From positions 31,269 to 95,268 of IMG/VR virus record IMGVR_UViG_3300003873_000004: 64,000 nt of DNA. One strand, written 5' to 3'. The translations under genes were made by a program, and so were the position numbers. The notes beneath the pieces are model-generated. The model was not told where the DNA came from, searched no databases, and saw only the letters and a list, made by a program, of their open reading frames with translations. The stretch comes from a virus. This document shows, one piece after another, positions 2,525 through 64,000 of the stretch; positions within the stretch are counted from its first letter, which is position 1; every line of letters starts with the position of its first letter.

Positions 2525-3742
2525 TCAGATAAAATATACAAATTTATCTTTTCGGACAACAGGAACTATAGATGCCTGTTCAGAAGACAACCAATAGAAA
2601 CCAGTTCTATTTTGTTGTTTTCTACGAAGATCGGGCGCGATCGCCCGCAGTGGTGAAGCAATGTTTTTGGCTGCGTTCAAATCCGCGTCATCTAAATGAC
2701 CGCATTTGTCGCACTCAAAAACTTTTCCTTTTCGGTTTGCTTTCTTCGTCCAACCGCATCCAGAACATCTTTGGCTTGTGTAAGTTGGGTTGATGTGCGT
2801 CACTAGAACGTCTAGTTCTTCACATCGAGCCTCGATCTTGTCAAAAATCTCTGGATATGTAAAATGAGAAAGGAATCTGGAACTTGTTTTTCCTTTCCTC
2901 ATGTCTTTTATGTTTTCTATCTTTAGCTCTTTACAACTGGACAGGTTTAGCCGGTTGATCGCCCAATTGATGTAGTTTGTTCTATGTTCTTGAGTCCTTC
3001 TAAATGCCTTCGAACCCTTTCTCTTTCTGGATAAGGTTTTCATGATTGAATCGAGATCGTGACCGTGGCGGTCGATCTTCGAAACTTGATTGTCTGAACA
3101 AGAAATGAGAGTCTTTGCTCCAATGTCGATGCCTAGAGTTTCTGTTCCTACATTTTGTCTTGGTTCTATTTCGAACAACATAGTAATTTCCTTTTCGTTC
3201 AGTCTAATAGATTTTTTTAGCTCACCTCTTGTCAGCAAATTATTAAAATGTCTGTGCCGTTTGAAAGGCAATTCAATTTTTATTTTACTTCCTATTGATC
3301 GTAGAGTTATGTATCCGTCAAACGAAGTTTTGTTTTCTTGATCAATATGAACAAACCTAGAATCTAATTCCAAGTTTATCTTATCTAAAATTGGCTTAGA
3401 TGGTGTATTGCGATCATAAACTTTTCTTAACTTGTTTGCTTTTTCGATGTTGCCTGATATTTCTAACTTATTAATCATCCATAAACGTTTCTTTTGCTTG
3501 GCTTTTGTTCCTTTAATGATGCCGATGGCCTGTTTTGTAGCACACTGTATCATTCTGGCAGAAAGCCAAGAAGTTATATTGTCAGTGAAGTCTCTCGTTG
3601 CGAACTTAGGGAGGGTTTCGTACCCCCAATAGAAGTCAATTGTTTTCTTCATAACATTTCTATATTCACAAACGATTGAAGACACCGTTTGTTTCTTCGA
3701 TTTGTTTGTGAATTTAAGAGAAACTTTAGAAGATTTAATCAT
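2525..3742 (-). CDS. tnpB: TnpB RNA-guided nuclease (IS607/IS605 family)
   Basis: A 405-residue TnpB, an RNA-guided DNA endonuclease ancestral to Cas12 that helps the transposon persist. The RuvC-like active site is complete: the first Asp in LGIDIGAKTL (about residue 203), the Glu in LKIENIK (about 272) and the last Asp in DDADLNAAKNI (about 353). A four-Cys zinc knuckle (CSGCG and CDKCG) lies between the last two. Length and order are normal. Its guide RNA would normally arise from the 3' end of the gene plus the element end, around 2500-2680, where a stem CGGGCG-CGAT-CGCCCG is visible at 2632-2647. The start overlaps the end of tnpA by eight bases. Confidence 0.92.
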   Translation of the reverse strand: MIKSSKVSLKFTNKSKKQTVSSIVCEYRNVMKKTIDFYWGYETLPKFATRDFTDNITSWLSARMIQCATKQAIGIIKGTKAKQKKRLWMINKLEISGNIEKANKLRKVYDRNTPSKPILDKINLELDSRFVHIDQENKTSFDGYITLRSIGSKIKIELPFKRHRHFNNLLTRGELKKSIRLNEKEITMLFEIEPRQNVGTETLGIDIGAKTLISCSDNQVSKIDRHGHDLDSIMKTLSRKRKGSKAFRRTQEHRTNYINWAINRLNLSSCKELKIENIKDMRKGKTSSRFLSHFTYPEIFDKIEARCEELDVLVTHINPTYTSQRCSGCGWTKKANRKGKVFECDKCGHLDDADLNAAKNIASPLRAIAPDLRRKQQNRTGFYWLSSEQASIVPVVRKDKFVYFI

Positions 3743-10001: not shown

Positions 10002-12125
10002 ATGAAAAAGAAAACTGAATTGCTGGCTAAAATGATGGCCGCAGAAGATATTAACGTCATCTTCTCAAATGCTAAAACCGCCAGTTTCAATCCCGTATCC
10101 AGAACATTAGCAATGCCAACATTTGTAGAAGACTCACCAGAGTGTGTACGATTTGGTTTCGTAGCACATGAAATTTCGCATGCTATTCACACACCAGCGG
10201 TAGAAAAAGTTACCCCGATTCTGAACATTGTCGAAGATATACGCATTGAGAAGTTGATCAAGCGTAAATTTCGCGGTTCTGCCAATTACATTTCAAAAAT
10301 GTATGAATACTTATGGAGCGAAAACTTTTTTGGTTGTAATGAAGATGGAATCAACACCAAGAATTTTCTAGATCGCTTGAATGTTTATGCTAAGACCAAA
10401 GATTCTAAAAACGCTCCTAGTGTTCATTTTTCTGATGAAGAACAAAAGTTGGTTGATCGTTCTTTCCTTACGACGTCATTTGAAGATGTGCTGTCACTAT
10501 GTGAAGAAATCAAAGAGTTCATGAAAAATCAACAGCAAAATGAAGAACCAGAAACTACAAAAGAAATTCGCCGCGATAGTGACGAATCAGAAGAACAGAA
10601 AGAAAGTCAAGTTGAAGAATCTGATGCTGACGAAGAAGAAACTGACGAAGAGTCAGAAGAAAGCGAAAAACAAGAGTCTGAAGTGGATGAAGAGGAATCC
10701 CAAGACGAATCAGAAGAACAGAAAGAAAGTCAAGTTGAAGAATCTGATGCTGACGAAGAAGAAACTGACGAAGAAGAAACTGACGAAGTCAAACCATCAG
10801 GTCAGCTTGACGGCGAGACGATTCAAGAAGAATTTGAGCCAGAATCAGAAACTCAAGATCAACTAGATAACGCTTTCAATGAAATGGTAGATAAAGAAAA
10901 GAAAAGTGAAGATGTTGCTATGGTTGGAAGTTTTCCAGAAGATTTGATCCACAAAGACGGGGTTATCGAATTTCTCGAGAAGAAAATGAAATATACAAAA
11001 GGCGGTATCACGTATGGTACTGGCATACATCGTCGATATGTCAGCAATGTGGTTTTGCTTCTTGATTCAGATGACAGAACTGCGAAATTTATCAATGATG
11101 CTAAGGCTCAGGTAGCTTTGCTTTGTAAACAATTCGACATGAAAAAACGGGCTTCTCTATTTTCGAAGAGTAAAATCGCATCTACTGGGGAACTTGATGT
11201 GAATTTGCTGTCAGAATATAAATTTAAAGATGACCTATTCTTGAAAGATGAAATCTTACCAAAAGGAAAGAATCATGGTTTGGTGCTGCTGATAGACTTT
11301 TCGTATTCAATGGAGAGCCGAATAGATGCCACGTGCAAACAAGCTGCTGTTTTGGCGCTGTTTGCTAGAAAGGCTAACATCCCATTGAAAATATATGGGT
11401 TTACGACAGCACGATGGCGTGGATTTGATGCCAAGAAATTTGATGTTTCTGAGCAGGAAATCAACATTGGCAAAGCTGTTATTTTTCAGATTATTGACAC
11501 ATCAATCAAAGTTTCAAAATCTGATTTTGTTCGCGTCATTAAATTGTTGACACATGCCCCGACATGGTTTTATGATATTTCTGGAATGACTCCAATGTCA
11601 ACTACAGCAATGGTGGTCAGCGATGACGTTATTCGCTGGAAATCAAAAAATCAAATCGAACGCGTTAGCACATTGTTTCTTACTGATGGTGCTTCACACT
11701 ATCCGGTTAAGAAAAACATTGATCCTAAAATAGACAAAGATTTTCTAGTTTTTTATGGAAAATTGTTTGACACTAAAACCAAAAAGAAGCACGAAAGTTC
11801 CGATATGAGGTCGGCTTATAAAATATACAAAGATCGTACACAATCATCAATTGGAACAATGTTTATCGCCACAAGAAAAGATTTTCGTTATATTGTTAAT
11901 GCCAAAGACTTTTCTGAATTGAAAGCAGAAGGTATTGTGAAAGTTGATTATATGAGCGACGTTGTTGATGCCTATTTTTACATGACTGACGAAGATCGGC
12001 TTTCCGATGTCGCTGACATGGAAATCGAAGAAGGAAAAGCTGCTGGTCGATCGTTCACAAAGAAAGCCCGCGCTAAAGCCAAGTCGATAGTGTTTGTTAC
12101 ATACTTTGCTGAACTGCTCGGATAG
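10002..12125 (+). CDS. CobT-like VWA-domain protein
   Basis: A 707-residue protein of the type annotated as CobT in some T4-like phages. An N-terminal HExxH-like motif (VAHEISHAIHTP, about residue 55) suggests a metallopeptidase-like fold. A highly acidic region follows (about 180-290). The C-terminal half is a von Willebrand A domain with a MIDAS motif (LLIDFSYSME, about 427) and a later LTDGASH. VWA proteins of this kind pair with MoxR/CobS AAA+ ATPases, and such an ATPase is encoded just downstream. The acidic region holds a 70-base direct repeat (10581-10650 and 10704-10773). The cobalt chelatase name is historical; the phage role is unknown. Confidence 0.82.
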   Translation: MKKKTELLAKMMAAEDINVIFSNAKTASFNPVSRTLAMPTFVEDSPECVRFGFVAHEISHAIHTPAVEKVTPILNIVEDIRIEKLIKRKFRGSANYISKMYEYLWSENFFGCNEDGINTKNFLDRLNVYAKTKDSKNAPSVHFSDEEQKLVDRSFLTTSFEDVLSLCEEIKEFMKNQQQNEEPETTKEIRRDSDESEEQKESQVEESDADEEETDEESEESEKQESEVDEEESQDESEEQKESQVEESDADEEETDEEETDEVKPSGQLDGETIQEEFEPESETQDQLDNAFNEMVDKEKKSEDVAMVGSFPEDLIHKDGVIEFLEKKMKYTKGGITYGTGIHRRYVSNVVLLLDSDDRTAKFINDAKAQVALLCKQFDMKKRASLFSKSKIASTGELDVNLLSEYKFKDDLFLKDEILPKGKNHGLVLLIDFSYSMESRIDATCKQAAVLALFARKANIPLKIYGFTTARWRGFDAKKFDVSEQEINIGKAVIFQIIDTSIKVSKSDFVRVIKLLTHAPTWFYDISGMTPMSTTAMVVSDDVIRWKSKNQIERVSTLFLTDGASHYPVKKNIDPKIDKDFLVFYGKLFDTKTKKKHESSDMRSAYKIYKDRTQSSIGTMFIATRKDFRYIVNAKDFSELKAEGIVKVDYMSDVVDAYFYMTDEDRLSDVADMEIEEGKAAGRSFTKKARAKAKSIVFVTYFAELLG
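10581..10773 (+). repeat. Internal direct repeat in the acidic region of the CobT-like gene
   Basis: About 70 bases beginning GACGAATCAGAAGAACAG occur at 10581 and again at 10704, coding for D-E-S-E-E-Q-K-E-S-Q-V-E-E-S twice. The spacing is in frame, so it is a likely site of length variation. Confidence 0.85.
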
Positions 12126-12129
12126 GTGC

Positions 12130-12158
12130 TTGACAAACAGAGCAAAAGGGTCTAGACT
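12130..12158 (+). promoter_or_regulatory. Sigma70-like promoter (first copy of the duplication)
   Basis: TTGACA, 17 bases, TAGACT, followed by TTATTGTATTGACAGAG, a downstream block shared with many promoters in the window. Confidence 0.72.
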
Positions 12159-12196
12159 TATTGTATTGACAGAGACAAACCACAGGAGATTTAATT

Positions 12197-12382
12197 ATGG
12201 CACAAGAAGTATCAATTACAGATTTTGAAAAGCAAGTGAAAAGAGCCAAAGACGTTTTTGCTTATGTTGAAGGAATTGGATACCTCAAGGTAACCAAACA
12301 ATCTTTGCTTGCTACTGTCGACAACTATCCAGAAGACGACTATTTTTTCAGGCCCGACGAAAATGCGGTTTATATCAATTAA
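12197..12382 (+). CDS. 61-residue protein sharing its N-terminus with the CobS-like protein
   Basis: Its first 12 residues equal those of the CobS-like protein; the rest (VFAYVEGIGYLKVTK and onward) is unrelated and of unknown function. It has a promoter and a good ribosome binding site. It may be a new gene made by duplication of the promoter region. Confidence 0.6.
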   Translation: MAQEVSITDFEKQVKRAKDVFAYVEGIGYLKVTKQSLLATVDNYPEDDYFFRPDENAVYIN

Positions 12383-12385
12383 CGC

Positions 12386-12414
12386 TTGACAAACAGGTTA
12401 AAAGAGTCTAGACT
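12386..12414 (+). promoter_or_regulatory. Sigma70-like promoter of the CobS-like gene (second copy)
   Basis: TTGACA, 17 bases, TAGACT; second copy of the duplicated promoter. Confidence 0.72.
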
Positions 12415-12452: not shown

Positions 12453-13364
12453 ATGGCACAAGAAGTATCAATTACAGATTTTGAAAAGGGCGTTCTTGCT
12501 GAATATGGAACCAACGAATTATGTCGTCGAAAGATTGTTGAGTTTGCTAAGAAATATGATTACCGGGTTCCAAAACAGGTTTGGAATAACAAAACGTCAG
12601 AGAAGCGCGGCGCGACATATATTGTATCGGAACAACAAGTAACCAAGACTCAGACAGTAGATCAGAGTCAGCTAGTTGAAACACCAATAGCGGTAAAACC
12701 AAAGGCTGAAGTCGAAATGGTCGGTGGTATCAAAGCTATCCGTAGTACGGAAACACGTTACACCATCGACAAAGATCCAAACTTCATCCGTTGGGGCAAC
12801 TTTTCAGACTTTCGAGCAATCATCAAAGCAAATCGTTTCTTTCCCACTTTTGTCACTGGGTTGTCTGGTAACGGTAAGACTACAGGAATCGAGCAGGCTT
12901 GCGCGGCAGAGGGTCGAGAATGTATTCGATTCAACTTCACTCGTGAAACTGGTGCGGACGATTTGCTTGGCGGGCTTAGGCTGATTGACGGAGATACTGT
13001 TTTTCAGTATGGTCCGATTGCTGAGGCATATATGCGTGGAGCAATCCTTATACTGGACGAATGTCTAGAAGAAAACGAAGAGGTTCGAGTTGGAAAGGTG
13101 AACGAATGGGTTCCAATGAAACTCAAGGATATGAATTTTGGCCAAACTTACCCTGTAGTGTCATTTAATCAAGATACTGGAAAGTTTGAAAACGATACGG
13201 CTTCTATTATTTCGGATAAAGATGACGATCTTTACGAAGTTGAATTGGAAGATGGTTCGACAGTTGTTGTAAACTCGAAGCATCCGTTTGTGGTTGGCGA
13301 CGGCAAAGAAACCAAAACAATAGAAGATGGACTTATTGTAGGTGCCGAAGTGGTCGTTGCTTAA
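12453..13364 (+). CDS. CobS/MoxR-like AAA+ ATPase, N-terminal half fused to an N-terminal split intein
   Basis: Residues 1-203 are the N-extein of an AAA+ ATPase: Walker A is GLSGNGKTTGIEQA (about 134) and it stops inside Walker B at ILILDE. Residue 204 is Cys and begins 100 residues of intein: CLEENEEVRVG (block A), a DDDLYEVELEDGSTVVVNS region and SKHPFVVGDG (block B), ending VGAEVVVA and a stop. The rest of the intein and of the ATPase is at 14617-15285. Trans-splicing should rebuild LILDE-CDLADARI and a 387-residue ATPase, the likely partner of the CobT-like VWA protein. Confidence 0.9.
   Translation: MAQEVSITDFEKGVLAEYGTNELCRRKIVEFAKKYDYRVPKQVWNNKTSEKRGATYIVSEQQVTKTQTVDQSQLVETPIAVKPKAEVEMVGGIKAIRSTETRYTIDKDPNFIRWGNFSDFRAIIKANRFFPTFVTGLSGNGKTTGIEQACAAEGRECIRFNFTRETGADDLLGGLRLIDGDTVFQYGPIAEAYMRGAILILDECLEENEEVRVGKVNEWVPMKLKDMNFGQTYPVVSFNQDTGKFENDTASIISDKDDDLYEVELEDGSTVVVNSKHPFVVGDGKETKTIEDGLIVGAEVVVA
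13062..13361 (+). other. Split intein, N-terminal part (IntN, 100 residues)
   Basis: Starts with the catalytic Cys right after LILDE and contains the block B sequence NSKHPF. There is no C-terminal splice block in this gene. Confidence 0.88.
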
Positions 13365-13391
13365 TTCATGTAATTCCAAAAACTGAAATTA

Positions 13392-13399
13392 TATAAATA
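13392..13399 (+). promoter_or_regulatory. Late promoter TATAAATA
   Basis: A perfect T4-type late -10 element, followed by AAGAT and the ATG of the endonuclease gene. Late, leaderless expression of the endonuclease is implied. Confidence 0.68.
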
Positions 13400-13404
13400 A
13401 AGAT

Positions 13405-14553
13405 ATGGATATAAATTATATAAACTTCGTTAAAGAAAATTTGGATTGGTATATAGAAAATGTTACGATTCCTGGGACAGTAGACATATATGATGGTGTT
13501 TATCACAATAGGTCTATTGCCCGGGACAAGTATAAAGAAATACAGCAAATAGATGTCGAGAAAGCTTGCCCAACGTGTGGTAAGAAATTCACCAGAAATA
13601 TTCGACACAAGAAAATATATTGTGGTTCCACCTGTCGTTATGGAGCAAAGAGGTCGACAAAGAAATATAGAACAAGAGAGAAAACCAACATCGTAACATA
13701 CTCAGGATTACAGGAAGTTCTCACAGAACTCAGAAAAATTAACGCTATCGAATATTTAAAAAACTACACCTTCCAAAATAAACCAATACAAAAGACAAAC
13801 ACCAAGAAAATCCGAGAGATACTTACGTTGTTTTCTAAAGACGACACCTTCGATGTTATTTTTGTAGACGGTTCGTTTGGGAAGATACCAGTGAAAAGAA
13901 CCCAGTTTTCTGAGGATTATTTAGCAAAGGCCATAAAATTAGGCATTCTCAACGAAGGTTCATCATACGACGAAATATACAAAACGAAATTTCCAGACGC
14001 GTATGCCAAATGTATAAAATGCGGAAATGACTTTTTGAAATACAAATATAGTCAAACCGAGAAACGGTTAATTAGGAATATTATGTATGACCTTTGTTCT
14101 TATAAATGTATATGTGATTCAAGAAATGAATTATATCCAGTATCAGACGAAACAAGGCAGCGGCAGTCGAACACTACAAAGTCTATTATAGCCAAAGGGC
14201 TGTTTACGCCAATCAACAATGCTATGAGGGGCAGAAAACAATCAACCAGCGAAAAATACGGAGAGGAAGTAAAATTCGATAGTTCCTGGGAGAAAAAGTT
14301 TTACGAGGAATATGAATATGAATTAAAACGAAGCACCCCTAGAATAGAATATATCTCTCCAATCGACAACAAATCCCACATATATGTTGTTGATTTTTTC
14401 GACAACAGAACAAAAACGATGATAGAAATCAAGCCGTCTTGCCACGTTTCTGATGAAGTTATAGTTGCTAAGACGGCAGCGGCAAAATTATGGGCAGAAG
14501 AACACGAGTGTACATTTAAAATTATCACGGAAAAAGATTATGATTTCTCTTGA
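13405..14553 (+). CDS. Free-standing Vsr-like (EDxHD-type) homing endonuclease
   Basis: A 382-residue protein lying between the two halves of the split-intein gene, the position where Vsr-like endonucleases such as the I-Bth0305I group occur in fractured genes. Two zinc-finger-like parts are seen: CPTCGKKF with CGSTC near residue 55, and CIKCGNDF near 205. The C-terminal nuclease domain has SSWEKKFYEEYEYE, then YVVDFF and MIEIKP, matching the E...D...E-x-K order. It probably cuts the uninterrupted cobS-like gene. It has its own late promoter and no ribosome binding site. Confidence 0.8.
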   Translation: MDINYINFVKENLDWYIENVTIPGTVDIYDGVYHNRSIARDKYKEIQQIDVEKACPTCGKKFTRNIRHKKIYCGSTCRYGAKRSTKKYRTREKTNIVTYSGLQEVLTELRKINAIEYLKNYTFQNKPIQKTNTKKIREILTLFSKDDTFDVIFVDGSFGKIPVKRTQFSEDYLAKAIKLGILNEGSSYDEIYKTKFPDAYAKCIKCGNDFLKYKYSQTEKRLIRNIMYDLCSYKCICDSRNELYPVSDETRQRQSNTTKSIIAKGLFTPINNAMRGRKQSTSEKYGEEVKFDSSWEKKFYEEYEYELKRSTPRIEYISPIDNKSHIYVVDFFDNRTKTMIEIKPSCHVSDEVIVAKTAAAKLWAEEHECTFKIITEKDYDFS

Positions 14554-14578
14554 CAAAGTGTTCGAAAGGGTCTAGACT
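14550..14578 (+). promoter_or_regulatory. Sigma70-like promoter of the C-terminal CobS half
   Basis: TTGACA, 17 bases, TAGACT. The second half of the fractured gene thus has the same promoter type as the first, which may keep both halves in step. Confidence 0.72.
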
Positions 14579-14616
14579 TATTGTATTGAAAGAGACAAAT
14601 CAAAGGAGAATTTATT

Positions 14617-14730
14617 ATGGAAACAAAAAAAGTAGTTTCAATCAAAAAAGTAGGTCGCGGGCATGTCCGCAATTTGTGTGTAAACAAAAATCACACGTTC
14701 GTCACATCTAACGGAATAGTTACCCACAAT
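14617..14730 (+). other. Split intein, C-terminal part (IntC, 38 residues)
   Basis: Contains block F (HVRNLCVNKNHTFVTSNG) and block G (IVTHN), followed by Cys as the first extein residue. It is the usual length for a natural split IntC. Confidence 0.9.
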
Positions 14731-15285
14731 TGCGACCTAGCAGATGCTAGAATAATGTGCCTTCAATCAGTTCTCGAAGGCAAGCCAATTTTCCTGCCAA
14801 AACTTGGTAAGAAAATTCATCCGGCTAAGGGATTCAATGTGTTTGCTACTGCTAATACCAAAGGTAAAGGTTCAGATAGTGGGCAATTCATGGGAACAAA
14901 TGTCATGAATGAAGCATTTCTTGATCGGTTTTCAATCACCATTGAACAGAGTTATCCAGCCGCGGCGATTGAGAAGAAGATCGTCAGTAAATATGCCACT
15001 GACTATTTCGGCCATGTTCTCAGTTTGCGAGATCAGACGGTTTGTGATAACTTGGTAACTTGGGCACAGATCACCCGCAAGAGTTTCCTGGAAGGTTCAA
15101 TTGACGAACTGATTTCGACTCGTCGACTGATTGCTACGGTTGAGTCGTATGCCATTTTCGGTTCAAATATCGAAAAGAGTATTGAATATGCTACGAACAG
15201 GTTTGATGACGATACTAAGGAAAGCTTCGTGGAACTGTACAAGCAAATCGATTCTGGTATGAAAACATTTGAGGAGGACGAATAA
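14617..15285 (+). CDS. C-terminal split intein fused to the C-terminal half of the CobS/MoxR-like ATPase
   Basis: Residues 1-38 are IntC; the ATPase resumes at Cys39 with CDLADARIMCLQSVLEGK, then FNVFATANTKGKG (sensor 1) and NEAFLDRFSITIEQSYP (arginine-finger and sensor 2 region), the hallmark order of CobS/MoxR proteins. 184 extein residues join the 203 from 12453. A ribosome binding site (AGGAG) precedes the ATG. It ends 11 bases before a small secreted protein gene. Confidence 0.9.
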   Translation: METKKVVSIKKVGRGHVRNLCVNKNHTFVTSNGIVTHNCDLADARIMCLQSVLEGKPIFLPKLGKKIHPAKGFNVFATANTKGKGSDSGQFMGTNVMNEAFLDRFSITIEQSYPAAAIEKKIVSKYATDYFGHVLSLRDQTVCDNLVTWAQITRKSFLEGSIDELISTRRLIATVESYAIFGSNIEKSIEYATNRFDDDTKESFVELYKQIDSGMKTFEEDE

Positions 15286-26824: not shown

Positions 26825-27420
26825 GAATTATTGGACTTGCCGGGAAGGCGAGAAGCGGCAAAGACACTGTCGCCGGTATGATTCAAGACACATTAGAGCT
26901 AGATTTCCAGGAACTTGCCGTAAAATATGCTCTAGCTGGCCCATTGAAAGAAGCAGCAGCAAAAATGTTTGGAATTCATCTAGACGATTTCTACAACGAT
27001 AATAAAGAAACACCAAACGATTTCTGGGGCATCTCCCCTAGAGAAATTGCTCAGAAATTCGGGACGGAATGTGCTCGCGAAGTATTTCGAGAGGATTTCT
27101 GGTTGAAGCGTATGGAAATGGAAATGACGAGCACAAATTGCGACGTGTTCGTTATCACAGATATTCGATTTCGAAATGAAGCTGATTGGGTACGATCACA
27201 TGGCGGGGAAATTTGGCATGTTGTCCGACCTTCTATTGGTGATGGTGTTGTTCGAGATCACGCATCAGAAGCGGGAATTGAATTTGTTGAAGGTGACGTT
27301 TCTATTTCAAATGACGGTTCATTGCCGCAGCTAGAAAAACGTGTCCTGACCTTTTTAGATAATATCTTGACAAAAACTAAGATTTCTGATAGTCTCAGCG
27401 TAGAGAAGGAGAACAAATGA
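26821..27420 (+). CDS. Deoxynucleoside monophosphate kinase (T4 gp1-like)
   Basis: 199 residues. The P-loop GLAGKARSGKDTVAG, DIRFRNEADWVRSHGGEIWHVVRP and the C-terminal VSISNDGSLPQLEK match the phage dNMP kinase family. It supplies dNDPs for replication. It overlaps gp43 by four bases. Confidence 0.87.
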   Translation: MRIIGLAGKARSGKDTVAGMIQDTLELDFQELAVKYALAGPLKEAAAKMFGIHLDDFYNDNKETPNDFWGISPREIAQKFGTECAREVFREDFWLKRMEMEMTSTNCDVFVITDIRFRNEADWVRSHGGEIWHVVRPSIGDGVVRDHASEAGIEFVEGDVSISNDGSLPQLEKRVLTFLDNILTKTKISDSLSVEKENK

Positions 27421-28949
27421 CAAAATTTTACACATCAGTTGAACCCTATGGCAATGCTTTCCGTGTCAGACAGGTAGATGATGGAATCAGATCGAACAGA
27501 ATCGTTCGTGGGTTTGTTCCAGACTTATTTCGACCAACAAACGACGAATCAGAAAAGCAAGCAATCGGAATGGACGGAAAGACTATGCTTGCCAAATTGC
27601 CTTGTTCTAACGTCAGAGAGGCCAAAGATTTGATTCAACAATACTCTGGGACGTCTTTTGATGTTTATGGCTCACCAAACATGATTTCTCAGTTCATTTC
27701 GAAAACATATCCAGGAACTATTGATTTCGACCCGTCTAACATTCGAATCTTCTACCTAGACATGGAATGTTACACTAGGAATCCAGATGGTTCGAGTGCT
27801 GGATTTCCTCACTCAAAGGATGCCAAGTTTCCGATCAATCTAATTCAGGTCATTGACAGTCAAGATGTCGAGGGTGATGTTGTTAGAATTTGGGGACTAC
27901 AGCCATTCGATGATTCAGAAAGTGACATTATCTACACAGTATGTCGAGACGAGAGCGACTTACTATGTCGATTTGTACAATTTTGGCAGAGTAACTGCCC
28001 AGACGTCATGACTGGCTGGAACGTAAAAGGATTCGATGTTCCTTACATTGTCAATCGTATTATGTCAGTGTTAGGCGAAGATGAAGCGAAGAAATTGTCT
28101 CCATGGGGCGAAGTTCGTCAGCGCAATTATACAAACGATTTTCAGCAAGAAGAACAGACGTATATTATTTCTGGGGTTGCTGTACTCGATTATCTTGAAC
28201 TCTATAAGAAATACACATACCATAATCTCGAAAATTATAAATTGGACAGTGTCGCACATTACGAATTGAAAAGTAGGAAGGTAGACTACTCAGATTTAGG
28301 CTCTCTGTTGCGTTTGTGTGACGAAGACCATGATAAATTTGTGGAATATGGAGCAACCGACTCCCGGCTGATTTTACAGTTAGAACAGAAGATGAAGTTG
28401 ATCAATTTGGTATTCGAGCTTGCTTACCATAACAAGACGAATTATGCTGATACTTTTTCTCCGGTTAGATCATGGGAAGCAATCATTTTCAATACGATGC
28501 TTGATCGAAATATGTATTCTACGGTCGAAAATACAGACAACACAGAACAATTTAGAATAGAAGGCGGTTTTGTAAAACAACCAACAACTGGTAAAATGTT
28601 AGAGTGGGTAATATCAGAAGATTTTGCTAGCCTATATCCGTCGCTTATTATGCAGTATAACATTTCGCCTGAGACATATCTAGGGCAGGATTATCTTGAC
28701 GTACCACAGTTTGAACGTGAAGACTTGATAGCGGGCAGTGTTGATTTGTCGAAGTTGACAGGAACAAATATCACAATGACACCAAACAGATCATTTTTCA
28801 ATACAGAAAACGAAGGAATATTACCCTATTTGATGGGGCTGATGTATGCGGAACGAAAATCAATCAAGCGAGAAATGTTATCTGTGGAACGGGAACGAGA
28901 GATCGTTCGAGATAAAATAAGAAGCTTATCGGATGAGACTGCCGGATAG
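27417..28949 (+). CDS. 43: DNA polymerase gp43, N-terminal part (exonuclease and start of palm)
   Basis: 510 residues of a family B polymerase. 3'-5' exonuclease motifs: IRIFYLDMEC (Exo I), MTGWNVKGFDVPYIV (Exo II) and EYGATDSRLILQLE (Exo III). Polymerase motif A is EDFASLYPSLI. The frame stops after IRSLSDETAG, in the stretch between motifs A and B. Motif B and all later motifs are encoded separately at 30077-31413. The last 24 bases overlap the end of an antisense HNH gene. The two products may associate, as known for split gp43 of some T4-related phages. Confidence 0.93.
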   Translation: MTKFYTSVEPYGNAFRVRQVDDGIRSNRIVRGFVPDLFRPTNDESEKQAIGMDGKTMLAKLPCSNVREAKDLIQQYSGTSFDVYGSPNMISQFISKTYPGTIDFDPSNIRIFYLDMECYTRNPDGSSAGFPHSKDAKFPINLIQVIDSQDVEGDVVRIWGLQPFDDSESDIIYTVCRDESDLLCRFVQFWQSNCPDVMTGWNVKGFDVPYIVNRIMSVLGEDEAKKLSPWGEVRQRNYTNDFQQEEQTYIISGVAVLDYLELYKKYTYHNLENYKLDSVAHYELKSRKVDYSDLGSLLRLCDEDHDKFVEYGATDSRLILQLEQKMKLINLVFELAYHNKTNYADTFSPVRSWEAIIFNTMLDRNMYSTVENTDNTEQFRIEGGFVKQPTTGKMLEWVISEDFASLYPSLIMQYNISPETYLGQDYLDVPQFEREDLIAGSVDLSKLTGTNITMTPNRSFFNTENEGILPYLMGLMYAERKSIKREMLSVEREREIVRDKIRSLSDETAG

Positions 28950-29927
28950 TCCTCTATGTGTTTTCTGCCGTTTTGCAGTTAAGTCACAAATACCTTGAGA
29001 ACTAATATTCATATGAGAATACTTGTGTTTTATTTCATACGTAGTGCCAGTGAATTTATTTCCTGAGTCTATTTCGTACACCGTGTGAATTTTCTTATAT
29101 TTATCTATTTGTTGATCGTATTTTCTTGGTAGACTATCATCGTTTATCTTCATCCAGCCATCAGATTGACCATTAGGTTTTCTAAGAATATAGTATATGT
29201 TTACCTCCGGGTATTTGTCTGAGAATTCATGGTTTGTGCCATCGAAGCGTTCCTCGGTGTCTAAGTTATATAATGATATTTTCTTTGCTCCGTGGAACAA
29301 TCGTGAAGCCTCAGTGTTAGATTTTGTACTGTAAGTTGGTATGATGTTGTCGTGTGTGAGCATCCAGTCGTTTGATTTTGCTCCTTTATGTGATAGCATA
29401 TAATTCATGGAAACGTGTTCCCGTTTTCTGAACTCGTATACTGTACCGTTGAAGAATTTTTTCGTCTTAAGATTGTATGCTTGTATTACCTTTTTGTTGT
29501 TTGGTGATTCTTTCGCCCTTTCTATAATCCCTTCTGTCATTAGTCTTTTTGCCTCTACGCGCTGGCGCAAGGAACGATAGTTTCGGTTTATCTTTTGTGA
29601 ACAAATAAGCCCATAGGATAGATACATCTTTGTTTTACTTTTGCCCGTTGTTATTCTACATAGAAGGTGGTGAGCGAACAAATGCTCTCTGATGGATAGC
29701 TGCACAATATTATCTTCAGACTCGCCGGTTCCGGGAATAACTGCAAATTTAGATTGTCTAGGCGAGTCTAAGAAGAAACTTGCTGGAATGATGTGGTGTA
29801 ATTCCAGACGAGGAGCCTTGCTCGGAAACGCTTGTCTAGTCGTTATAAAATCGTCATAAATTTTAAGGTATTTGTTTTCTTTGAACGCTGCGAGATTATA
29901 CTCTCGATCATAAATAGATTTAGTCAT
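28926..29927 (-). CDS. HNH homing endonuclease, antisense, splitting the polymerase gene
   Basis: 333 residues. The HNH motif is LELHHIIPASFF, then EDNIVQLSIREHLFAHHLL. Three related C-terminal modules follow, each with a pattern like Y-x-L/I-x-T/S-x5-F-x-G-T-x-x-E-F/I (NGTVYEFRKR, DGTNHEFSDK, TGTTYEIKHK), likely repeated DNA-binding modules. It lies head to tail against gp43 and has a TATAAATA late promoter on its strand at 30004. Its position recalls mobE-type genes that split gene 43 in some T4-related phages. Confidence 0.88.
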   Translation of the reverse strand: MTKSIYDREYNLAAFKENKYLKIYDDFITTRQAFPSKAPRLELHHIIPASFFLDSPRQSKFAVIPGTGESEDNIVQLSIREHLFAHHLLCRITTGKSKTKMYLSYGLICSQKINRNYRSLRQRVEAKRLMTEGIIERAKESPNNKKVIQAYNLKTKKFFNGTVYEFRKREHVSMNYMLSHKGAKSNDWMLTHDNIIPTYSTKSNTEASRLFHGAKKISLYNLDTEERFDGTNHEFSDKYPEVNIYYILRKPNGQSDGWMKINDDSLPRKYDQQIDKYKKIHTVYEIDSGNKFTGTTYEIKHKYSHMNISSQGICDLTAKRQKTHRGLSGSLIR

Positions 29928-30003
29928 TTCAATACTCCATTATTGTTTTGATTAGAAGGCTGTTTGTGTTACTAGCACAGGCGGCCTTCGTTGTTTCTGA
30001 TAG

Positions 30004-30011
30004 TATTTATA
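30004..30011 (-). promoter_or_regulatory. Late promoter TATAAATA for the HNH gene
   Basis: Perfect TATAAATA on the minus strand about 80 bases before the HNH start. Transcription late and antisense to gp43 is implied. Confidence 0.6.
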
Positions 30012-30028
30012 AAAAGTTAAATTTTCGC

Positions 30029-30057
30029 TTGACAACTAATGTAAATAAATGTAGACT
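30029..30057 (+). promoter_or_regulatory. Sigma70-like promoter of the second polymerase part
   Basis: TTGACA, 17 bases, TAGACT, then ATGGAGGAAAA and the ATG at 30077. The second half of gp43 therefore has its own promoter and ribosome binding site. Confidence 0.72.
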
Positions 30058-30076
30058 ACACAAACATGGAGGAAAA

Positions 30077-31413
30077 ATGACATTAGAAAAACTAAAACAG
30101 CAGGAGCAGGATTTGACATCGAAGATTTCAAGTCTTAATAATGCTCAAATGGCTAGAAAAATCCTTTAATTTTGGAGGCTTTGGTCGGGAACGACCATTG
30201 TACATCGTGTGAATTGCTGGAAAGCTAAGTCGAAAGATATGCCAATCAGCAGCCAAGCCCACATAGGGAAGGTTCAGAGACTATCCGTAAGGAGTAGGAA
30301 TCAAGTGGTTCCGAAGCGCACGACAACCAGAACGGTTGATGATATAGTCCGATCTTGCGCGAAAGCGTAAGCTGCGAAAGCGAGGCAATAGTAACGTCAT
30401 TGTCTGAACATGTGCTAAATTCCTGTTTTGGTGCCCTAGCATCAAAATATTATAGATATAACAATTCATATATTGCTGAGTCCATAACTACGGCGGGACA
30501 AGTTGGTATCCAGTGGACAATGAGAAAAACAAATGAATATTTGAACCTTATTCTAAAAACTGACGATGTGGATTATACCGTCGGGGCAGACACAGATTCC
30601 GAATATGTTGAATTAAATCAGCTAGTTATGAGATATTTCAAAGATAAGCCAAACGCGACAGATCACGACAAAGTTGAATTTCTTGATCTGTTCTGTAAGA
30701 CCCAGCTCGACCCCGCGATTCAAAAGTCTTGTATTGAGATGAAAGATTATATGAACGCAAGATTAAACAAGCTAGATATGGAAAGAGAAGCCATATCTTC
30801 ACGTGGTTTTTTCACCGCGAAAAAACGGTACGCTCTACTGGTACATGACATGGAAGGCGTCCGCTACGCCAAACCAAAACTAAAAATCATGGGATTAGAA
30901 ACTCAGAAATCTTCTACACCAAAACCATGTAGAGATTTGCTAAAAGATATGATCATGGTAATGTTGACCAAAGGGGAAACAGAAACCCAAGAGTTCATCG
31001 AGAATGCCCATGATGATTTTATTGCTCTTGACATTGGTGAATATGCCGTCCCGCGTGGTATCAATGGTCTAGAAAAATATTGTATCGAAAATGGCAAAGC
31101 TATCAATGGTACACCAGCGCACGCTAAAGCAGCTTTAGTTTACAATATGATGATCAAACGAAAGAATTTACCGCTTGACCCAATCAAATCTGGGGACAAG
31201 TTGAAATATGTTCCACTGAAAGAACCAAATCCTTGTGGATTTCCAATTGTTGGATTCCCGTCACATCTAGGATTGCCAAAAGAATTTGGATTAGATGAAT
31301 ATGTGGACGTAGAAACTGTGTATTATAAAGCATTTTTGAAGCCGGCAGAAGCCATGCTTGGTGCTGTCGGATGGAATGTAGAGAAAACATCTAGTCTGGA
31401 GGACTTTTTCTGA
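30077..31413 (+). CDS. 43: DNA polymerase gp43, C-terminal part (interrupted by a group I intron)
   Basis: Joined exons 30077-30166 and 30415-31413 give 362 residues. The first exon ends NNAQMARKIL and the second begins LNSCFGALASKYYRY, rebuilding the polymerase motif B region (T4 RKILINSLYGAL). Motif C follows as VGADTDSEYV, then MDREAIS, AKKRYALLVHDMEG and IMGLETQKSSTPK, and the C-terminal tail ends SLEDFF, the likely clamp-binding peptide. A separate ATG at 30077 with GGAGG makes this an independent cistron after the HNH insertion. Confidence 0.93.
30167..30414 (+). ncRNA. Self-splicing group I intron in the polymerase gene
   Basis: 248 nt, without an internal reading frame. The 5' exon ends ATCCTT and its CCUU pairs with the internal guide GAGG at 30174-30178, giving the U-G pair required at the 5' splice site. 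The last intron base is G (30414). Core elements are visible: AATTGCTGGAAAGC, CAATCAGCAGCCAAGCC, AAGGTTCAGAGACTA and GATATAGTCC, as in the T4 td and nrdB introns. Splicing restores an uninterrupted motif B. Confidence 0.92.
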
Positions 31414-42747: not shown

Positions 42748-42776
42748 TTGACAACAGCGTCAAAATAGTTTAGACT
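42748..42776 (+). promoter_or_regulatory. Sigma70-like promoter TTGACA-N17-TAGACT
   Basis: Begins three bases after the preceding stop and drives the genes 42815 to 43497. Confidence 0.72.
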
Positions 42777-61902: not shown

Positions 61903-64000
61903 TGTCGAAGTCATTATATACTAAATTATCAGAAGAACGAAAAAAGCAGCAAGAAGAAGGCACATTACCAGAATGGGTAACTACTGCTGGATTTCAGATG
62001 TTTTCTGATAGATATTTGTACGACGCTAACAATATGAAAGAACAGTTCGAACGTATTGCCAGCATAGCGGCTAAGCATCTACCAAAAGAACATCAGCAGA
62101 CAGCAAATGATAAATTCTTCGAACTGATGTGGAAGGGTTGGATGTCTTGTTCTACACCAGTTTTAGCCAATATGGGAACAAATCGAGGATTGCCTGTTGC
62201 ATGCAGCGGTGGCATTGTCGGAGACGAGATTTTTTCCATGTTCGAATCCGCTTTAGAAGCCGCCGTATTGACAAAGAATGGATTTGGTACTTCATCTTAT
62301 CTAGGCAACATTAGACCAAGAGGTGCCGCAATTTCGACTGGCGGCAAAGCATCTGGAGTTGTGCCAGTGTTTCGTCATTTTGTTTCTATTATGCGTGATG
62401 TATCACAAAGCGGTATTCGCCGAGGCTCTTGGGCCGGATATTTACCAATCGAACATGGAGATTTCGATGAACTTGCTGACTATGTTAAGGATAATCCCGA
62501 TGACGCTAATGTGGGCTGGAATATTTCTGACAATTTTATTGAAAAGTTGCAGAATCAAGACGAAGAAGCAACACGTCGTTTCAAGAAAGCTATGAAGATG
62601 AAGATGCTGACAGGCAAAGGATATTTCTTCTTCATCGATGAAGTGAACAGACAGAATCCTTATGCTTATACGAAGAACGGATTGACAGTAAAAGCGTCGA
62701 ATTTGTGTCTTGTTGGTGATACTAAAGTCAAAGTACGACAGAATAAAAAGAAATTTGAAATTGAATTATCTGAACTTGTATCACGATGGCAGGCGGGCGA
62801 AAAATTCAAGGTTTATTCTTGTGACATCAATACAAAGGAAGTTCGTTGGAACAAAGTCACTGATGCGGCTATGACAAATCCCGCCGCTAAAATTTACACA
62901 ATCACAGACCCACAGACAGGCAAAACAATTCGTTGTACTAGCGATCATAAAGTATATACGGTAAATCGTGGATATGTTAAAGCTACTAAATTGAAAACTA
63001 CTGATATTCTTTTACATTCTGATTTGTCTGAATATCAAGCAGGTATTACAATTTCTGGTGGAACAGATCTTGAACCCGTGTATGATATTACTGTAGAGAA
63101 TACACACAATTTCTTTGCTAGTGATATTCTTGTTCATAATTGTTCAGAAATCGCTCTATTCTCGGACAAAGATCATACATTCTCCTGTGTTTTATCGTCA
63201 ATGAATCTATCCAAGTATGATGAATGGAAAGATACTGATGCTGTTTTCTGGAGTACCGTATTTTTGGATTGTGTTTGCTCTGATTTCTTACAACGAGCAA
63301 AGACAATCAAAGGGCTGGAAAAAGTTGTTCGATGTACGGAGAAGGGAAGAGCGGTTGGACTTGGCGCTATGGGTTTACATACTCTATTCCAGAAGCGTGG
63401 AATACCATTCGAAGATATGCGAGCTTTTTTGCTCAACACTGAAATTTCCAAACATATTGAAGGGCACTCGAAAGAAGCTTCGATCTGGTTGGCAAAAGAA
63501 TTAGGAGAACCAGAGTGGTGTAAGGGATTGGGAATCAGAAATACTCATTTGACAGCAATCGCTCCAAATAAATCTACCGCTCTGTTGCTTGGTGGTATTT
63601 CAGAAGGAATCAATCCTGATCCTGCTATTGTGTACACTCAAATGACCGCCGCTGGTGAAGTATCGAGAATCAATTCTGTATTCCTAGAACTGATGAAAGA
63701 ACGAGGAAAATACAAGAAATCTATTGTGGCTGATATTTCCGATCACTTTGGTTCAGTGCAACATTTGGATTGGCTGACCGATGACGAAAAATTAGTGTTC
63801 AAGACTGCGTTCGAGATCAATCAGGAAACTATTATCAACATGGGCGCAGTTAGACAGAACTTTGTTGATCAAAGTCAATCTCTAAATTTGTTTTTCTCAG
63901 CAGAAGAGGACGAACGATGGATTTCTCATATTCACAAGCTTGCCTTCGAGAATAACATCAAGGCCCTTTATTACATCACGAGCCTTACTGGAGTAGAAAC
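61902..64000 (+). CDS. nrdA: Ribonucleotide reductase large subunit with mini-intein (3' end outside window)
   Basis: About 700 residues are visible; the gene runs off the right edge. CSTPVLANMGTNRG and later NLCSEIALFSDKD carry active-site Cys and the conserved N-x-C-x-E of the catalytic centre. The extein is interrupted after SNL by a 145-residue intein (62706-63140) that ends DILVHN, followed by CSEIA. Without the intein the sequence reads ASNLCSEIALF, the usual reductase motif. T4 keeps its nrd introns in the same pathway. Confidence 0.93.
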   Translation, partial: MSKSLYTKLSEERKKQQEEGTLPEWVTTAGFQMFSDRYLYDANNMKEQFERIASIAAKHLPKEHQQTANDKFFELMWKGWMSCSTPVLANMGTNRGLPVACSGGIVGDEIFSMFESALEAAVLTKNGFGTSSYLGNIRPRGAAISTGGKASGVVPVFRHFVSIMRDVSQSGIRRGSWAGYLPIEHGDFDELADYVKDNPDDANVGWNISDNFIEKLQNQDEEATRRFKKAMKMKMLTGKGYFFFIDEVNRQNPYAYTKNGLTVKASNLCLVGDTKVKVRQNKKKFEIELSELVSRWQAGEKFKVYSCDINTKEVRWNKVTDAAMTNPAAKIYTITDPQTGKTIRCTSDHKVYTVNRGYVKATKLKTTDILLHSDLSEYQAGITISGGTDLEPVYDITVENTHNFFASDILVHNCSEIALFSDKDHTFSCVLSSMNLSKYDEWKDTDAVFWSTVFLDCVCSDFLQRAKTIKGLEKVVRCTEKGRAVGLGAMGLHTLFQKRGIPFEDMRAFLLNTEISKHIEGHSKEASIWLAKELGEPEWCKGLGIRNTHLTAIAPNKSTALLLGGISEGINPDPAIVYTQMTAAGEVSRINSVFLELMKERGKYKKSIVADISDHFGSVQHLDWLTDDEKLVFKTAFEINQETIINMGAVRQNFVDQSQSLNLFFSAEEDERWISHIHKLAFENNIKALYYITSLTGVE
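62706..63140 (+). other. Mini-intein in NrdA (145 residues, no endonuclease)
   Basis: It starts with Cys in CLVGDTKVKVRQ (block A), has CTSDHKVYTVNRGY (block B) and ends TVENTHNFFASDILVHN (blocks F and G) before Cys of the extein. No LAGLIDADG or HNH domain fits in this length, so it can splice but not home. Confidence 0.92.

What the first reader, a model, noticed from the sequence alone, without database searches (positions are those of the whole stretch)
12453..15285. Fractured CobS/MoxR-like gene with a split intein and a Vsr-like homing endonuclease between the halves
The ATPase is cut inside Walker B: LILDE is followed by an N-terminal intein (100 residues) and a stop, then an independent Vsr-like endonuclease gene with its own late promoter, then a C-terminal intein (38 residues) whose last N is followed by CDLADARI. 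Fractured split-intein genes with such endonucleases are known from metagenomes at helicase, reductase and IMP dehydrogenase genes; a MoxR/CobS site cut in its ATPase motif is not one I recall. Both halves have sigma70-type promoters of the same kind, so the halves look co-regulated, while the endonuclease is late.
Basis: partly seen in the sequence, partly recalled or inferred. Interest (0 to 1): 0.86.

Follow-up and report, generated by a model that had tools for sequence, protein, structure and literature searches.

The report
Phage ATPase gene rejoined by split intein
A T4-like phage encodes a MoxR/CobS-type ATPase as two separate genes whose proteins are predicted to be stitched together by a split intein, with a mobile DNA-cutting enzyme gene sitting between them; the same kind of element occurs at the same catalytic motif in several other phage motor genes, which hints at a mobile element that tracks one ATPase motif from gene to gene.

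Summary
At 12453-15285 a CobS/MoxR-like AAA+ gene is cut exactly after Walker B (LILDE|C). A 100-aa IntN ends the first half, a 382-aa endonuclease ORF follows, and a 38-aa IntC opens the second half. Intein profiles match both pieces. Uncut homologues exist in the same gene neighbourhood, and four further IMG/VR contigs carry the intein in the same gene at the same residue: three fractured, one continuous. The "fractured gene" arrangement is known (Dassa 2009). The "late promoter" claim survives comparison with relatives, though not the motif count in the window alone. Added here: this split-intein/TnsA-like-endonuclease family sits at or just after Walker B of four P-loop NTPase genes (cobS-like, clamp loader gp44, UvsW, TerL). 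CobS inteins branch inside gp44 inteins. The window's endonuclease groups with TerL-locus endonucleases, so intein and endonuclease seem to have separate histories. Splicing and cutting are inferred; nothing was assayed. New variant of a known kind. I could not read Dassa 2009, so part of this set may already be listed there.

The parts
12453..13364 (+). First half gene: CobS/MoxR-like AAA+ N-extein (12453-13061) fused to IntN (13062-13361), stop TAA
   Evidence: AAA_5 2.4e-8; phrog_249 2e-36; intein_Nterm
13062..13361 (+). IntN, 100 aa, Cys1, block-B-like NSKHPF
13392..13399 (+). TATAAATA, candidate late promoter of the endonuclease, first base 13 nt before the ATG
13405..14553 (+). Endonuclease ORF: N-terminal zinc-finger-like cysteines plus C-terminal TnsA-like PD-(D/E)XK nuclease (S293-S294-W295-E296, D330, E341-x-K343)
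14550..14578 (+). sigma70-type promoter of the second half gene (TTGACA-N17-TAGACT); the endonuclease stop codon (14551-14553) lies inside its -35 box
14617..15285 (+). Second half gene: IntC (14617-14730, ends HN) fused to CobS-like C-extein (14731-15282)
   Evidence: phrog_249 3.2e-57; intein_Cterm 1e-6
12386..12414 (+). sigma70-type promoter of the first half gene, same family
12128..12232 (+). 105-nt upstream copy (96% identical) of the promoter, leader and first 12 codons of the first half gene; starts a 61-aa ORF (12197-12382)
10002..12125 (+). CobT/VWA-like partner gene, upstream neighbour also in the uncut homologue

Best explanation
A fractured gene. The two halves of a phage MoxR/CobS-like AAA+ ATPase are made as separate proteins from similar phage promoters. 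IntN and IntC associate and trans-splice, joining LILDE to CDLADARI and restoring Walker B in a 387-aa ATPase. The endonuclease between them is a TnsA-like homing endonuclease that most likely cuts uninterrupted alleles at or near the Walker B codons, so that repair copies the cassette across; it is probably expressed late from its own TATAAATA promoter. The intein lineage most likely came from clamp-loader (gp44) Walker B inteins, while the window's endonuclease came from TerL-type fractured loci. Shown by sequence: the anatomy, homology, uncut and continuous alleles, promoter motifs. Inferred: splicing, cutting, homing, late timing, direction of transfer.
For: Anatomy and profiles. Uncut homologue in the same neighbourhood (LILDE|LDLAD in L002/L003); about 80 fetched cobS loci are uncut, +1 residue almost always I, V or L. 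Same residue split with endonuclease in L006, L007, L110 and continuous in L111. The L111 intein model (pLDDT 96) matches solved inteins (best E 3e-9), and the continuous-intein profile matches Ssp DnaB, gp41-1, Npu DnaE and NrdJ-1 inteins. Splicing residues C1, block-B His, HN and C+1 are present. Nuclease residues are conserved in 17 aligned members; TnsA is the top fold match (prob 1.00, though E only 0.03). Homologous intein plus endonuclease at the gp44 Walker B. Intein tree nests cobS within gp44 (branch 95/88). Endonuclease tree puts the window with TerL loci (97/89). Late motif enrichment.
Against: No assay. IntN is just below the TIGR01445 cut-off. The window endonuclease sits on a long branch, and monophyly of cobS endonucleases is not rejected (p 0.144), nor of cobS inteins (p 0.219). 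The strong hairpin around the late motif in L006, L007 and L110 is absent in the window. The phage's structural genes use GCTAAATA rather than TATAAATA.
Confidence: 0.88

Rival explanations
1. Genes in pieces without splicing: the two half proteins assemble non-covalently, as for the mobE-split nrdA of phage Aeh1 (from memory), and the intein pieces are dead tails.
For: Phages do tolerate split genes with endonuclease insertions (PMC2988022).
Against: All splicing residues and the HN|C junction are kept, and the intein pieces are conserved with 43-67% identity to relatives; a cut between Walker B and the next residue is unlikely to be tolerated without ligation.
Confidence: 0.06
2. The endonuclease is a free-standing parasite that homes only itself into an already split intein; the intein itself is no longer mobile.
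For: Split inteins without an endonuclease exist in the family (L010, L016, L126, L128); the endonuclease and intein trees differ for the window.
Against: The endonuclease lies between the two intein halves in most split members, the intein sites are DE|C in several genes, and uncut alleles lack the whole block.
Confidence: 0.3
3. Assembly artefact or decayed pseudogene.
For: The window itself is a single viral metagenome record.
Against: Independent contigs and one deposited 462-kb phage (LR756500.1) show the same order; all three ORFs are open, with catalytic residues intact.
Confidence: 0.01

Closest known systems
Fractured genes with split inteins and free-standing endonuclease (Dassa et al. 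2009, NAR; from memory and citations, full text not held)
   Same: Enzyme gene broken by a split intein with an endonuclease gene between the halves, in phages, some with their own control elements
   Different: Endonuclease nuclease domain is TnsA-like rather than Vsr-like; host gene is a CobS/MoxR-like AAA+ ATPase cut directly after Walker B. I could not check whether its loci include clamp loader, UvsW or TerL.
gp41-1, NrdJ-1, IMPDH-1 split inteins
   Same: Canonical split position (about 100/38 aa), Cys1, HN; profile similarity to gp41-1 and NrdJ-1
   Different: Different host gene and site; distinct subfamily
TerL1-e inteins of mycobacteriophages at Walker B (PMC5050341)
   Same: Intein at the Walker B motif of a phage P-loop ATPase
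   Different: Reported there as TerL inteins only; relation to the present family not tested
I-TevI / Aeh1 mobE regulation (PMC2988022)
   Same: Late promoter next to an endonuclease embedded in an early transcription unit; hairpin around it in L006, L007, L110
   Different: The window copy has no hairpin; spacing suggests a leaderless late mRNA instead

Membership tests
Split intein (HINT) | N- and C-terminal splicing regions on separate ORFs | tested here: met
   IntC above cut-off, IntN slightly below, relative above
Split intein (HINT) | Cys1, block-B His, terminal HN, Cys/Ser/Thr at +1 | tested here: met
   sequence
Split intein (HINT) | HINT fold | tested here: met
   AF2 of the continuous relative L111 (the window pieces themselves were not folded) matches solved inteins
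Split intein (HINT) | Trans-splicing activity | not testable with these tools
   needs co-expression
Fractured gene (Dassa 2009) | Host enzyme gene broken by the split intein with an endonuclease gene between | tested here: met
Vsr-like (EDxHD) homing endonuclease | Vsr-type domain and EDxHD motif | tested here: not met
   no Vsr hit at E<=1; motif absent in the window and in 105 related ORFs
TnsA-like PD-(D/E)XK nuclease | PF08722 above cut-off and catalytic E, D, ExK | tested here: met
   37.7 bits against 26.5; conserved residues; TnsA top fold match at E 0.03
Homing endonuclease | Cuts the uninterrupted allele and is copied into it | not testable with these tools
   only presence/absence across alleles seen
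T4-type late promoter | TATAAATA at -13 to -6 | tested here: inconclusive
   present, right spacing, enriched in the family; not enriched in this genome; no transcript data

The most novel reading that the evidence does not exclude
A family of mobile split inteins with TnsA-like endonucleases is specialised on the Walker B codons (LDE|) and has moved between distinct P-loop NTPase genes (clamp loader to CobS-like; related elements in UvsW and TerL), with endonuclease modules exchanged between loci and carried along with their own late promoter.
Probability: 0.45. Interest if true: 0.72.

Novelty: new variant of a known kind. Interest (0 to 1): 0.56.

Why it matters
Inteins usually home to the same gene. 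A lineage sitting after the same catalytic motif in two AAA+ genes that lie close together in these phages, with relatives in two more P-loop NTPase genes, makes cross-gene transfer of a homing element directly testable. Empty, continuous, fractured and endonuclease-free alleles are all available, so the order of steps that creates a split intein can be traced. It also offers a new natural split-intein set for protein ligation.

Tried and rejected
Single-sequence search for the endonuclease in viral contigs found nothing; an alignment query was needed. IntN search of cellular genomes found no relative. Sequence search of the endonuclease profile in PDB gave only zinc-finger and ribosomal-protein noise. 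Rejected: the Vsr-like label; the TATAAATA count in the window as evidence; a specific copy of the cobS promoter in front of IntC (its leader is as close to another promoter at 42768); the idea that gp44, UvsW or TerL of this phage also carry the element (all uncut). An archaeal RFC intein at the same site was considered from weak NCBIfam matches but not shown. Dassa 2009 not held.

Full report
Observation. The three ORFs and their boundaries are as described. The two extein halves match adjoining parts of the phage CobS-like family phrog_249 (44-202 and 202-360). IntC passes the intein C-terminal model and IntN nearly passes the N-terminal one. Upstream lies a CobT/VWA-like gene, downstream the sliding-clamp and clamp-loader genes; the record (95 kb) also carries what look like T4-type structural genes (by position and sequence; not searched against families), so this is a T4-type phage.

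Uncut and continuous alleles. L002/L003 have the same neighbourhood with an uncut gene, LILDE|LDLAD. All cobS loci examined from a further scan are uncut, with I, V or L at +1 in all but three, which carry C (the 80 best of at least 595 loci, so not a census). L006, L007 and L110 are split with an endonuclease at the same residue; L111 has a continuous 145-aa intein there, followed by the +1 Cys; L114 is split two residues later. The L111 intein (with its +1 Cys) was modelled at pLDDT 96 and matches solved inteins; the profile of continuous members finds gp41-1, Npu DnaE and NrdJ-1 among others.

Wider family. The same IntN/IntC type sits after the Walker B DE of the clamp loader gp44 in about 30 loci, including the deposited phage LR756500.1, and off-site in L012 and L127. 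Endonucleases of the same type lie between split inteins in UvsW-type helicases (DE|CH) and at or just after Walker B in TerL; the inteins there are more distant. The only DNA clearly shared across cobS and gp44 sites is the Walker B codons themselves. This phage's own gp44, UvsW and TerL are uncut.

Histories. In the intein tree cobS members lie inside a supported group with gp44 members (95/88), and gp44 members are found on both sides, so transfer from gp44 to cobS is the simplest reading; the root is not inferred, bootstraps are rough, and one cobS clade is not rejected (p 0.219). In the endonuclease tree the window groups with TerL-locus enzymes (97/89 and 95/83), while L006, L007 and L110 group apart; the window branch is long and a single cobS clade is not rejected (p 0.144). 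Exchange of the endonuclease is therefore likely but not shown.

Endonuclease. PF08722 TnsA-like at 37.7 bits (cut-off 26.5); the residues of SSWE, D330 and E341-x-K343 are conserved; no EDxHD in any of 105 related ORFs. The model is good only in the N-terminal and C-terminal parts (mean pLDDT 70); TnsA is the top fold match with probability 1.00 but E 0.03.

Expression. Both halves have promoters of a family with 15 copies on the + strand of the window. TATAAATA lies 13 nt before the endonuclease ATG. Counted in the window alone it means nothing. Upstream of distinct related endonucleases it is enriched: 16/51 against 14/324 (p 5e-8), and with [CT]ATAAATA 27/51 against 26/324 (p 3e-13) (the sequences are related, so p is optimistic). 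The phage's own late genes show GCTAAATA, often exactly 13 nt before the ATG, like the CTAAATA reported for Aeh1 (PMC1524935). The endonuclease motif has the same spacing, which suggests a leaderless late mRNA. In L006, L007 and L110 the motif sits in a stable hairpin (z -5.2, -3.5, -5.1), reminiscent of I-TevI control (PMC2988022); the window has none.

Mechanism, with status. Two halves encoded by separate genes: shown. Trans-splicing restoring Walker B: inferred, about 0.88. Homing by the endonuclease: inferred, about 0.7. Late expression: inferred, about 0.65. Cross-gene origin: inferred, about 0.6.

Novelty. The arrangement is known; the host gene, the Walker B site in cobS, the TnsA-like nuclease and the multi-gene Walker B pattern are, to my knowledge, not described, but the key paper was not available. 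Literature searches found nothing on cobS or clamp-loader split inteins in phages, and the Thanatos paper describes its TerL case only as a 1.2-kbp insertion with frameshift.

Noticed in passing
window 27417-31413: DNA polymerase gp43 is in pieces: N part, an HNH-type homing endonuclease gene on the opposite strand (28926-29927), a group I intron (30157-30371, RF00028 E 2.8e-28) and the C part.
   Followed up: partly
window 62706-63143: Continuous mini-intein in the ribonucleotide reductase large subunit gene at the window end (PF14890 1.1e-12).
   Followed up: partly
L004 467-3567 (Shewanella phage Thanatos-2): The TerL 'frameshift by 1.2-kbp insertion' of PMC7530303 looks like a split intein at IYIDE|C with a TnsA-like endonuclease fused to a short IntN.
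   Followed up: partly
own record, e.g. L250 11367; L251 2349, 4160; window 42066, 47784: Late motif GCTAAATA repeatedly placed exactly 13 nt before the ATG, suggesting leaderless late mRNAs (19 copies against 3.8 expected).
   Followed up: partly
window 12128-12382: Tandem copy of promoter, leader and first 12 codons of the split gene leading into a 61-aa ORF of unknown function.
   Followed up: no
L012 1635 and 3600; L127 422 and 873; L114 3334 and 5121: Same intein family inserted a few to about 24 residues past Walker B, i.e. relocated sites within the same gene.
   Followed up: partly
window 2525-3742: Transposase-like gene in the phage (phrog_506 1.3e-28).
   Followed up: no
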